35,282 nucleotides of DNA. Source: Rikenellaceae bacterium. GTDB taxonomy: Bacteria > Bacteroidota > Bacteroidia > Bacteroidales > Rikenellaceae. The notes beneath the pieces are model-generated. The model had not been told where the DNA came from and ran no database searches. It worked only from the letters and a program-made list of their open reading frames with translations. The stretch lies in NCBI GenBank assembly GCA_031262465.1, contig JAISHQ010000041.1, positions 1-35,282 on the forward strand. The letters are read 5' to 3'. Positions 7,386 through 18,363 of this stretch are shown one piece after another; position 1 is the stretch's first letter, and each line of letters begins with the position of its first letter. Both the position numbers and the translations under genes were made by a program.

Positions 7386-7425
7386 AAAAAAACCCCTCGG
7401 CAAAAAGTTGCCGAGGGGTTTTTTT
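7386..7425 (+). terminator. Rho-independent terminator after the GH43 gene
   Basis: A perfect 13-bp stem, AACCCCTCGGCAA pairing with TTGCCGAGGGGTT, is followed by a run of seven T and preceded by a run of A. It begins 17 nt after the GH43 stop. The A-run on the other side would also let it work on the minus strand. Confidence 0.92.
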
Positions 7426-7437
7426 ATGTAAATCACG

Positions 7438-8024
7438 AACTGTTCTTAAAGAACCCCGCCTCGAACTGCCGCTTTTAGAAAGCGGCGCAAATCGTCGCCT
7501 TTTGTAAAAGGCGACACCGAAAACTTTTGGGCTTGTCTTTACAGGACGATCATCCCTTTAGGACATCGTCTTGTTTTTCATATCCCCCTGCCCTCCAAGC
7601 GAGCTTGGGGCGGGACATGAAAAACAAAACGCATTCGCCTGCGGCGAATGTGATCGCCCTGAAAACACATTCTATAACAGTGTGTTAAGGTTTCAAACAT
7701 CTTGCGGACGAGTTTGTGTAAGAAACTTTCGTCTATATTTTTGTCTGAAGTCGATAAAACGAAAATGCCTGTGTTTTTTCAGGGCGAAAACATTCACTCC
7801 GCAGGAGGTGAATGCCTCTTGTTTTGGATGCACCTGCCCAAGCTCGCTTGGAGGCAAGGGGGCATCCGGAACAAGAGGATTATTCCCGCAAGGGAATTTT
7901 CGTCCTGCCAACACAAGCACAAAAGTTTTTGATGCAACTTTTTACAAAAAGTTGCGATTTGCGCCGCTTTCTAAAAGCGGCAGTTCAAGGCGGGCGACTT
8001 TTCTAAAAAGTCGCAGTCAAAGGC
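7438..8024. repeat. Large modular hairpin element, copy A
   Basis: About 590 bp with no credible gene. Two arms (about 7438-7690 and 7775-8024) are imperfect inverted repeats around a roughly 100-bp unpaired core. Each arm is a chain of local hairpins: an outer GC stem with a CTTTTnnAAAAG-type top (7468-7486; 7963-7981), a second one (7494-7515; 7934-7955), a CCAAGC-TC-GCTTGG palindrome inside a longer branched stem, and an ATTCGC/GCGAAT or CATTCAC/GTGAATG stem next to the core. The same parts occur in the same order, in opposite orientation, at 17807-18363. The element lies between convergent genes (GH43 on the left, the 8039 gene on the right). No transposase is present. The open frame covering 7571-8101 is judged spurious. 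Confidence 0.85.
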
Positions 8025-8038
8025 ACAAAAGAATCACC

Positions 8039-9037
8039 CTAATACGCCCTAAATCTTGTATTTGTGATGCGGATGTGTCTCACTTCACCGCTCACCTCTG
8101 ATGTATAGTCGATAGTTTGGGGGATTAGCATTCGGTGATTTCTTCGGTAAATGTATTCGGAATAATCAATAACAACAGTAGCTTTGATATTATCTAATAA
8201 GCCTGAGATTAATAGCGATACTTCGGTACGCAGGAGTGTACGTGTGGCAGGATCCACATACAATAAACTCTGATAAATAAACGAATTATCCTGTTTGGAT
8301 GTATGGGTGACACGGAACTTTTTTATATCGTTCTCTTTGCCTAAATAACCGTATTGATTGTTATAATTTTTTCGATGCAACACCCTGGCCGACGAAGAAA
8401 AAGGCCCTTGGGCAAAACTACCCATAGCATCCCGAACCAGCCTGTCGAGTTTACCGGCCAACTTTGTCGTGTCGTCTGAGGTTTGTATCTCTTTCAATAC
8501 GTGGAAGCGACCGAACTGGGCAAACCGTTCGAATGACTTGTCTCTGACCAAATTCTCGACCCTCAATGTCCCTTTGATTGTTTTCTTTAGCGAGTCTTCT
8601 GTGGTTAGTTCGGCTTCAAAATCGGCCTCTAATATTCCATTAACAGAAACAACATAACTGTTTTTCAACGATTTCGCTAAAAACTTCTCTGCACTGCCTG
8701 TAACAACGACCTCGTCGACCACACCTCCGAATAACGGACTATCATAGAATAACTCACACAAGCCGCTTTCCCGGATTTGCTCGGTATATACCGTGCTGAC
8801 CGAAGGTGTCCCTATATAAGATGCCGAAATGGTGTCTCCCACGGATAATAGGTCGTAAGAAATCCAACCGACTCCCAACGAATCGGTATAGGTCACCGTG
8901 TGACTGTTGATCTCCAAATAGGCATAAGCGAGATATCCTTCCGTATCTTTTACCACCACTTTAAGCCTTTGCTCCCCGGCGGCGGATAGAACCGGAGAAC
9001 ATAAAATCAACAAGAGTAACGCAATAATTTTTTTCAT
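8039..9037 (-). CDS. Exported protein of unknown function
   Basis: A 332-residue protein with a clear signal peptide (MKKIIALLLLILCSPVLSAAG). Residues about 24-100 look like a small beta-sandwich of the carboxypeptidase-regulatory-like type, followed by VVDEVVVTGSA, a linker often seen before TonB-plug domains. No plug or barrel follows. The rest is mixed charged sequence with beta strands in the last 100 residues. I do not recognise a function. It starts 10 nt after the stop of the upstream propeller lipoprotein, so the two are very likely co-transcribed and may act together in the envelope. Base composition is visibly more AT-rich than the flanking fucose and nadA genes, which suggests a different history. 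The stop codon lies 14 nt from the hairpin element. Confidence 0.75.
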   Translation of the reverse strand: MKKIIALLLLILCSPVLSAAGEQRLKVVVKDTEGYLAYAYLEINSHTVTYTDSLGVGWISYDLLSVGDTISASYIGTPSVSTVYTEQIRESGLCELFYDSPLFGGVVDEVVVTGSAEKFLAKSLKNSYVVSVNGILEADFEAELTTEDSLKKTIKGTLRVENLVRDKSFERFAQFGRFHVLKEIQTSDDTTKLAGKLDRLVRDAMGSFAQGPFSSSARVLHRKNYNNQYGYLGKENDIKKFRVTHTSKQDNSFIYQSLLYVDPATRTLLRTEVSLLISGLLDNIKATVVIDYSEYIYRRNHRMLIPQTIDYTSEVSGEVRHIRITNTRFRAY

Positions 9038-11736: not shown

Positions 11737-11780
11737 GCCTTCGACTGCGACTTTCTAAAAGTCGCAGTTCAAGGCGGGGA
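11737..11780. repeat. Solo end-module of the hairpin element family
   Basis: A single hairpin, GCCTTCGACTGCGACTTT / AAAAGTCGCAGTTCAAGGC, followed by GGGG. The left part matches the outer end of copies A and C (GCCTTTGACTGCGACTTTT), and the AGTTCAAGGCGGG tail matches 7980-7994 of copy A. It is isolated, 29 nt upstream of the folC promoter box, and is either a fragment or the minimal mobile unit. Confidence 0.75.
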
Positions 11781-17020: not shown

Positions 17021-17776
17021 ATGCGAACATCTATTTATAGCCTAATCTGCGTGTTGCTCCTCACGGCCTGCGGTGGTCGAAGCCGCTCCAATCGACCGGC
17101 GGATAACCCGGCTCTGCCGACGGACAGCACGATTGAAACGGCCTTACAGGAGTCTCCGGTGGCGATAAGCCCCACGGCTCAGCAGTTGGAAGCGATGGGC
17201 TATGTCAATGTCGCAACGCTCGATCCGACCCTCGCGGTGCATATCGTTTACGCCACAGCGGATAATTTTGTGGGCGAGGTGCTCTATGTCGATTTGACCG
17301 AGGCTTACCTGTTGCCCGAGGCGGCGGAAAAGTTGGTCAAGGCGCATAACCTGTTGAAAGAGAGCCATCCCGGCTATCGTTTTATCATTTACGACGCGGC
17401 GCGACCGATGTCGGTGCAACGCGCCCTGTGGGAGGTCGCCGTCCGCAACGGAAAACAATACTATGTCTCCAACCCCACCAAAGGCGGCGGCCTGCACAAC
17501 TATGGCGCGGCGGTCGACCTGTCGATCCTCGACGCGAGCGGCACCCCGTTGCCGATGGGCACCGGGTACGACTTTTTCGGCCTCGAGGCCAATACCGACC
17601 GGGAAAATGCGCTGGTGGCCGAAGGCAAGCTGACTGAAGAGCAGTTGCAAAACCGCCTCCTGTTGCGCGAGGTGATGCGCGAGGCAGGCTTTCGAACAAT
17701 CACCAGCGAATGGTGGCACTTCAACCATTGCTCGTTGCCCGAAGCCATTGAACGCTACAAACTCATTGATTTTTAA
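17021..17776 (+). CDS. VanX-like D-Ala-D-Ala dipeptidase lipoprotein (M15)
   Basis: A 251-residue protein with signal peptide and lipobox LLTAC (Cys17). The peptidase domain keeps the VanX active site: Arg128 (DAARPMSVQ), zinc ligands His159 and Asp166 (GGLHNYGAAVD), catalytic Glu230 and zinc ligand His233 (SEWWHF). VanX and DdpX cleave D-Ala-D-Ala. As a lipoprotein, this enzyme would act outside the cytoplasm, more likely in peptidoglycan peptide recycling or remodelling than in glycopeptide resistance, since no vanH/vanA or regulator genes are nearby. It is divergent from the LolC/E-like gene and convergent with gltD, with hairpin element C in between. Confidence 0.9.
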   Translation: MRTSIYSLICVLLLTACGGRSRSNRPADNPALPTDSTIETALQESPVAISPTAQQLEAMGYVNVATLDPTLAVHIVYATADNFVGEVLYVDLTEAYLLPEAAEKLVKAHNLLKESHPGYRFIIYDAARPMSVQRALWEVAVRNGKQYYVSNPTKGGGLHNYGAAVDLSILDASGTPLPMGTGYDFFGLEANTDRENALVAEGKLTEEQLQNRLLLREVMREAGFRTITSEWWHFNHCSLPEAIERYKLIDF

Positions 17777-17806
17777 GGCAACTGTTCTTGACAGCACCAT
17801 TGCGCC

Positions 17807-18363
17807 GCCTTTGACTGCGACTTTTAGAAAGTCGCCCAAATCGTCGCCTTTTGTAAAAGGCGACACCGAAAACTTTTGGGCTTGGGTGCGCAGGGCGAAA
17901 ATTCCCTGCGGGAACAACCCCTCTTGTTCCGGATATTCCTCTGCCTTCAAGCGAGCTTGGGCAGGAATATCCAAAACAAGAGGCATTCACCTCCTGCGGA
18001 GTGAATGTTTTCGACCTGAAAACTCAACGGCCATTCCGTTTTGTCTGCGTCTTCAAATCAATATAGAAACGAAATTGTTTTCAGAGAGAACACTTTTCGA
18101 CAAAAATCCGAATCCCTAATACGCTGTTTCAGAATGTGTTTTCAGGGCGATCACATTCGCCTGCGGGCGAATGCGTCTTGTTTTTCATGTCCCGCCCCAA
18201 GCTCGCTTGGAGGGCAGGGGGACAGGAAAAATAAGACGAAGTCTCGGAGAGATGGTCGCCCTGCACACACAAGCAGAAAAGTTTTTGGGGCGCCTTTTTG
18301 CAAAAAGGCGCGATGGTTCTCTAAGAACAGTTCGAGGCTGTAAAAAAAGTCGCAGTCAAAGCC
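17807..18363. repeat. Large modular hairpin element, copy C (inverted relative to copy A)
   Basis: About 557 bp. The ends are near-perfect inverted repeats: GCCTTTGACTGCGACTTTT at the left, its complement with one change at the right. Inside are hairpins at 17817-17835 (GCGAC/GTCGC), 17843-17864 (GTCGCC/GGCGAC), 18290-18311 (GCGCC/GGCGC), the CCAAGC/GCTTGG palindromes in both arms, a TTCCC/GGGAA hairpin, and the CATTCAC and ATTCGC stems next to a diverged core (about 18010-18145). The order is that of copy A read on the opposite strand. An AACTGTTCTT / AAGAACAGTT pair lies just outside the left end (17780) and inside the right end (18323). It sits between the convergent VanX-like gene and gltD. 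Open frames in it are judged spurious. Confidence 0.85.

What the first reader, a model, noticed from the sequence alone, without database searches (positions are those of the whole stretch)
7438..8024. Large palindromic element built of hairpin modules whose stems co-vary with a second copy
Corresponding hairpins in copies A and C keep pairing while the bases change: GCCGC/GCGGC (7468-7486) versus GCGAC/GTCGC (17817-17835); GCAAC/GTTGC (7934-7955) versus GTCGCC/GGCGAC (7494-7515) versus GCGCC/GGCGC (18290-18311). The A/T-rich tops (CTTTT..AAAAG) are constant. Compensatory change implies selection for folding (RNA or single-stranded DNA), or a replication mechanism that rewrites stems. I know of no named family with this layout.
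Basis: seen in the sequence. Interest (0 to 1): 0.7.

Follow-up and report, generated by a model that had tools for sequence, protein, structure and literature searches.

The report
Strand-selected three-armed palindromic intergenic repeat
The window carries two copies of a high-copy, non-coding DNA repeat of Rikenellaceae gut bacteria, whose parts fold into hairpins that keep pairing while their letters change, with signs that selection acts on one particular strand; no catalogue searched here names it.

Summary
Copies A (7458-7991) and C (17807-18338) belong to a family with 119 half-elements in this 1.98-Mb Rikenellaceae MAG. A full element is two ~210-nt halves, inverted, inner ends facing (28 of 28 pairs), mostly ~117 bp apart. 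Each half holds hairpin H1, hairpin H2 and a three-armed domain. Stems covary strongly: 96.4% of cells pair against 37-49% when slid, and 25 of 52 pairs have double changes. Alistipes and Tidjanibacter keep the architecture with mostly different stem letters. Four new facts. (1) Stem mismatches are A.C far more often than G.T on the strand read outer to inner, so they become G.U wobbles on the other strand, which folds better in 110 of 115 copies; a 2-nt bulge is kept. This points to selection on one folded strand (RNA or ssDNA). (2) At orthologous sites whole arms are swapped for different self-complementary arms. (3) The two halves of one element are never of the same core type (0/27, expected 7.1). 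(4) The H2 motif is also high-copy in Acetobacteraceae and Desulfoluna. Best reading: a REP/BIME-grade non-autonomous repeat with unknown mobiliser. No Rfam, Y1-transposase, integron-integrase or resident reverse-transcriptase match. Transcription is untested.

The parts
7386..7427 (.). ordinary intrinsic-terminator-like hairpin of the upstream GH43 gene, just before copy A; not part of the repeat
   Evidence: sequence; motif located
7438..7457 (+). extra small hairpin GTTCTTAAAGAAC (H1 of the GTTCT type), abutting the outer end of copy A
   Evidence: sequence; same module as in alignment A1
7458..7665 (+). half-element 1 of copy A (beta-type core)
   Evidence: R1 covariance-model match 229.3 bits, E 1.8e-69
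7468..7486 (+). hairpin H1, type GCCGC/GCGGC
7494..7515 (+). hairpin H2, type GTCGCC/GGCGAC, followed by the linked flank ACCG and AAAACTTTT
   Evidence: stem-flank linkage tabulated
7542..7661 (-). three-armed domain: outer stem 7542-7552 with 7651-7661 enclosing arms a, b and c; the minus strand is the better-folding one (example: the A.C mismatch at 7546/7657 is G.U on the minus strand)
   Evidence: structure; motif positions
7594..7607 (+). 2-nt pyrimidine bulge (7594-7595) and constant cap CAAGCGAGCTTG (7596-7607) of arm b
7666..7775 (.). centre between the two halves of copy A (110 bp; typical for the family)
   Evidence: spacing list
7776..7991 (-). half-element 2 of copy A (alpha-type core), with H2 type GCAAC at 7934-7955
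   Evidence: R1 match 226.1 bits
7989..8024 (-). extra small hairpin unit (GCGACTTTTCTAAAAAGTCGC flanked by GCCTTTGACT-type arms) at the outer end of copy A
   Evidence: sequence
11737..11774 (.). solitary minimal H1 palindrome GCCTTCGACTGCGACTTTCTAAAAGTCGCAGTTCAAGGC
   Evidence: repeats D4, D6, I7
17807..18022 (+). half-element 1 of copy C (alpha-type core)
   Evidence: R1 match 213.0 bits
18023..18138 (.). centre between the two halves of copy C (116 bp)
18139..18338 (-). half-element 2 of copy C (beta-type core), H1 type GTTCT, H2 type GCGCC at 18290-18311
   Evidence: R1 match 208.8 bits

Best explanation
It is a family of non-coding, non-autonomous, interspersed palindromic repeats (REP/BIME/MITE grade) of Rikenellaceae. 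Shown: it is high-copy and intergenic, mostly between or behind gene 3' ends; each half folds into H1, H2 and a three-armed domain; arms are exchanged between copies as whole self-complementary cassettes; the two halves of an element are less alike than chance. Inferred: the folded form of one strand (read from the inner end through the three-armed domain to H2 and H1) is bound by some host or element factor during spread or function, so selection keeps its pairing, its bulge and its loop. Inferred: unlike halves are kept because two identical halves would form a long perfect palindrome, which is genetically unstable, so stem letters diversify while pairing inside each half stays. The mobilising enzyme is not identified.
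For: 119 half-elements in 91 places, 28 inner-facing pairs and no outer-facing pair. Covariation far above the slid control. Arm b mismatches A.C 236 vs G.T 21 in this genome and 42 vs 4 in other genera (p 5e-9; sequences are related). Distinct contexts over all arms 60 vs 16 and 13 vs 4. RNA energy of the inner-to-outer strand lower in 110/115 copies by a mean of 10.2 kcal/mol. A 2-nt bulge beside the arm-b cap in most copies and in 21 of 31 from other genera. Orthologous G063/G171 sites with the same flanks, H2 and outer stem but all small arms replaced by other self-complementary arms. Halves of one element never of the same core type, 0/27 vs 7.1 expected, P 0.0002, identity 0.650 vs 0.706 shuffled. 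Outer end faces a stop codon 84 vs 24 times, median 16 bp away. One species lacks the element at a shared site.
Against: No transposition event with target duplication was caught. The one empty site (G105) is too diverged to show a clean boundary. No candidate mobiliser: Y1 transposase is absent from all 18 genomes searched and reverse transcriptase from several copy-rich ones including this one. Other transposase classes were not searched. The dissimilarity of the halves could be inflated by short-read assembly dropping elements with near-identical halves. Wobble counts are not independent across related copies.
Confidence: 0.5

Rival explanations
1. A structured RNA: the inner-to-outer transcript of each half is the functional molecule, for example a bidirectional terminator, antisense-transcription barrier or 3'-end stabiliser between convergent genes. 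Selection on RNA pairing gives covariation and G.U tolerance.
For: G.U-tolerant strand asymmetry, bulge and loop conservation; placement between convergent genes, outer end a few bp behind stop codons in this genome and in other genera (48 stop vs 9 start).
Against: Copies often sit beside ordinary terminators (7386-7427 here; several loci). Sequence outside the inner end is not shared beyond a few bases in Alistipes copies (read), so no common promoter is apparent. The better-folding strand is the template strand of the abutting gene in most cases. 119 near-copies in one genome, with great presence/absence variation between species, fits a repeat better than a gene.
Confidence: 0.27
2. No selection on folding: palindromes are kept perfect by template switching inside hairpins during replication, and whole hairpins are copied between loci by gene conversion. 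Covariation is a by-product.
For: Arms are swapped as cassettes at orthologous sites; stem types are few, discrete and freely combined; one-sided changes are rare in many pairs.
Against: Template correction is blind to strand and would erase mismatches and bulges alike, yet a 2-nt bulge persists across genera and remaining mismatches are strongly A.C-biased on one strand.
Confidence: 0.15
3. An attC-like recombination site, recognised as a folded bottom strand behind a stop codon, as in integron cassettes.
For: Folded bottom strand preferred, structure kept while letters vary, conserved extra-helical bases, position just behind stop codons; these resemble attC features (bottom-strand use and lack of sequence conservation: abstract of PMC2727003, seen; bulge and position: own knowledge).
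Against: No integron integrase above its cut-off in 16 genomes. The copies analysed are dispersed in pairs or alone, not seen as gene-cassette arrays. The paired inverted halves are unlike attC.
Confidence: 0.04

Closest known systems
REP / BIME / REPIN elements with RAYT (TnpA-REP) transposases
   Same: High-copy intergenic palindromes, often behind genes and between convergent genes; hairpins in inverted pairs.
   Different: Unit is ~210 nt with a three-armed domain, not a 20-40 nt hairpin; no Y1 transposase in this or 17 related genomes; stem letters differ wholesale between copies.
MITEs / ERIC / RUP-type miniature elements
   Same: Short, non-coding, interspersed, internally palindromic, no own enzyme.
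   Different: Here the two halves of one element are significantly less alike than chance, whereas MITE termini are normally matched; no target duplication shown.
Integron attC sites
   Same: One folded strand appears preferred; unpaired bases kept; found behind stop codons.
   Different: No integron integrase; not seen in cassette arrays; much larger and multi-armed.
Catalogued structured RNAs (Rfam 15; palindromic candidates of PMC8040213)
   Same: Conserved secondary structure with covariation in gut Bacteroidetes; PMC8040213 reports 250 palindromic candidates, most predicted terminators.
   Different: No Rfam match at gathering score; low-threshold hits are the neighbouring terminator or weak. 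Identity with an entry of PMC8040213 could not be checked because supplements were not available.

Membership tests
REP/REPIN with RAYT | short (20-40 nt) intergenic palindrome in high copy | tested here: not met
   High-copy and intergenic, but half-element is ~210 nt
REP/REPIN with RAYT | Y1 (PF01797) RAYT transposase in the genome | tested here: not met
   0 of 18 genomes incl. own; control genomes ring
MITE | non-coding, repeated, internally palindromic | tested here: met
   crossing frames judged non-coding by inspection
MITE | matched terminal inverted repeats and target-site duplication | tested here: inconclusive
   TTTTCAG...CTGAAAA seen at many ends, but the outer end is variable and no duplication was demonstrated
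MITE | related autonomous transposon | not tested
   DDE and other transposases were not searched
Structured RNA gene or cis-element | significant base-pair covariation | tested here: met
   (shuffle and slide controls); not R-scape, and cassette exchange confounds independence
Structured RNA gene or cis-element | transcription of the structured strand | not testable with these tools
   no RNA-seq available
Integron attC | integron integrase in genome | tested here: not met
   TIGR02249: matches only below cut-off, as in control genomes
Retroelement-mobilised RNA | resident reverse transcriptase | tested here: not met
   PF00078 absent from G000, G001, G252, G256, G120, G251, G261

The most novel reading that the evidence does not exclude
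A previously undescribed class of structured mobile repeat, recognised as a folded single strand, whose H2 module (variable stem, CTTTTTnnAAAAAG, ACC/GC, AAAAACTTTT) is spread in high copy across at least three phyla, and whose multi-armed form in Rikenellaceae diversifies its stems because unlike halves are favoured.
Probability: 0.25. Interest if true: 0.85.

Novelty: new variant of a known kind. Interest (0 to 1): 0.6.

Why it matters
Intergenic palindromic repeats are common, but few show which strand is selected. Here sequence alone points to the strand, shows arms exchanged as cassettes at orthologous sites, and shows two inverted halves kept unlike, which would link stem diversification to palindrome instability. 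The shared H2 motif in Acetobacteraceae, Desulfoluna, Clostridia and Rikenellaceae raises a testable question: common descent by horizontal spread, or convergence on one recognised hairpin. It is also a warning that covariation alone can overstate independent compensatory events when hairpins move as blocks.

Tried and rejected
Rfam at gathering and permissive thresholds: nothing but the neighbouring terminator and weak matches. RAYT/Y1 transposase: absent. Reverse transcriptase: absent from several copy-rich genomes. Integron integrase: absent above cut-off. Plasmid and phage collections at blastn sensitivity: no match for the 215-nt half. Literature by sequence string: no relevant paper. Coding: ORFs cross the element, but stem changes are not synonymous and the frame shifts between variants (inspection), so rejected. 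An autonomous IS between inverted motif copies in viral contigs: the ORFs between them look like phage structural genes, so rejected. Fixed orientation relative to transcription: outer ends face stops, but tandem contexts give only 20 vs 9 here (p 0.06) and 4 vs 9 elsewhere, so I do not claim it. Mutational skew as the cause of the A.C excess: linkers and tails show no matching strong skew, though this is a weak control.

Full report
What is there. The window is contig C67 of a 1.98-Mb, 120-contig genome, 93% complete with 5.6% contamination. So the family is Rikenellaceae (inference from those matches). Copies A and C are two of many: a covariance model built from 53 half-elements finds 119 half-elements above 100 bits in 91 places. 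Twenty-eight places hold two halves, always with inner ends facing; the centre is mostly 105-139 bp. None of these has outer ends facing.

Anatomy. From the outer to the inner end a half holds hairpin H1, a short spacer, hairpin H2 (five stem types, each with a linked 3' flank: GTCGCC-ACC(G), GCAAC-ATC, GCGCC and GCGGC-CCC, GTCGC-ACC), AAAACTTTT, a linker, and a domain in which an outer stem encloses three arms. Arm b is long and capped by CAAGCnAGCTTG. Extra H1-type hairpins can be stacked outside (7438-7457, 7989-8024, and the solitary one at 11737-11774).

Is the pairing real? Yes. On alignment A1 96.4% of cells pair, against 36.6-48.7% for slid partners; 25 of 52 pairs have double changes; 394 doubly changed cells against 137 shuffled. 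In other genomes of the family the same model finds full-length matches up to 105 bits (same genus) and 86 bits (Tidjanibacter), with different letters in most stems.

Which strand? I aligned the two sides of arm b with scoring that treats G.T and A.C alike. Read outer to inner, mismatches were A.C 236 and G.T 21 in 114 copies here, and 42 versus 4 in 31 copies from other genomes. A.C on one strand is G.U (G.T) on the other. Over all arms, folded without G.U and counted once per distinct context, the figures are 60 versus 16 here (p 4e-7) and 13 versus 4 elsewhere (p 0.049). The inner-to-outer strand folds better as RNA in 110 of 115 copies, by 10.2 kcal/mol on average, and also with DNA parameters in 111 of 115. 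A 2-nt bulge, mostly TT or TC, sits beside the cap of arm b in most copies here and as TT in 21 of 31 elsewhere. An asymmetric, strand-biased structure argues for recognition of one folded strand. It does not separate RNA from single-stranded DNA.

How do stems change? Orthologous sites answer part of this. In two Alistipes-group genomes with closely similar flanks (L291, L305) the H2 hairpin, the outer stem and the cap are the same, but the small hairpin behind H2 and arms a, b and c are each replaced by a different self-complementary hairpin. In a second pair (L284, L297) the three-armed domain is nearly identical while the hairpin behind H2 and H2 itself differ. Arms therefore behave as exchangeable cassettes, most simply by recombination or gene conversion between dispersed copies (inference). 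Within this genome H1, H2 and core types occur in most combinations. Because a hairpin is contiguous, one exchange changes many pairs at once; counts of doubly changed pairs must not be read as independent events.

Unlike halves. In 27 full elements the two halves are never of the same core type; shuffling partners gives 7.1 expected (P 0.0002), and whole-half identity is 0.650 against 0.706 (0 of 500 shuffles as low). The longest exact shared run has median 15 nt against 24 for all combinations. H2 shows the same tendency weakly (3 of 27, P 0.08) and H1 does not. Long perfect palindromes are unstable in bacteria (SbcCD; own knowledge), so loss of same-type pairs is a natural explanation. Short-read assembly could mimic it by failing on such pairs, so it needs closed genomes.

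Where do they sit? In this genome the outer end faces a stop codon 84 times and a start 24 times, median 16 bp from the stop. In other genomes of the family 48 versus 9, mostly between convergent genes. This is the usual placement of tolerated intergenic repeats (own knowledge of REP elements). At one site shared by two element-bearing species, a third (G105) has only an ordinary terminator-like hairpin.

Spread. An H2 pattern with more than 20 fixed bases hits 36 of 268 family genomes with no hit for the reversed control. It is also high-copy outside the family: 54 in Komagataeibacter xylinus, 77 in Novacetimonas maltaceti, 47 in Acetobacter garciniae, 37 in the complete Desulfoluna limicola genome, with zero control hits, and it occurs in some viral contigs. 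Whether that is common descent or convergence is open.

What moves it? Unknown. No Y1 transposase, no integron integrase above cut-off, and no reverse transcriptase in this genome. Other transposases were not searched. I therefore place it with non-autonomous palindromic repeats by how it looks and behaves, not as a member of REP, MITE or attC families. Interest rests on the strand-specific signal, the cassette exchange and the unlike-halves rule, each of which can be tested directly.

Noticed in passing
L317:1132-1892, L321:401-1152, L324:5047-5815: In viral contigs the H2 motif occurs as inverted pairs behind stop codons between what look like phage structural genes (by position and appearance; not searched against a library), with a central hairpin in the L317 spacer.
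   Followed up: partly
L040:140-470: In the same-genus genome G001 the spacer before rpoC (after what looks like the end of rpoB) holds two H1-H2 modules with outer ends facing, the opposite arrangement to full elements in the window genome.
   Followed up: no
L268:2170-2330: An orthologous copy in G063 is interrupted by about 150 bp of unrelated sequence just behind H2; possibly a second mobile insert.
   Followed up: no
L267, L268, L269, L275 downstream of the gene: Alistipes-group intergenic regions hold another nested palindrome family (ATTTTGTCGTCAGAGCGGGGCA...) wrapped round terminator-like hairpins.
   Followed up: no
solo half-elements in G000, 0-120 bp beyond the inner end: Inner ends of solo halves share tail subfamilies (e.g. 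CACATTCTACAACAGTGTATTAAGG, CACAATTCACTTCAGTTCCC), so the repeat unit may extend further than modelled.
   Followed up: no
window 7571-8101 and 17748-18343: ORFs of 100-176 aa run through the repeats and might be annotated as hypothetical proteins; they look spurious.
   Followed up: no
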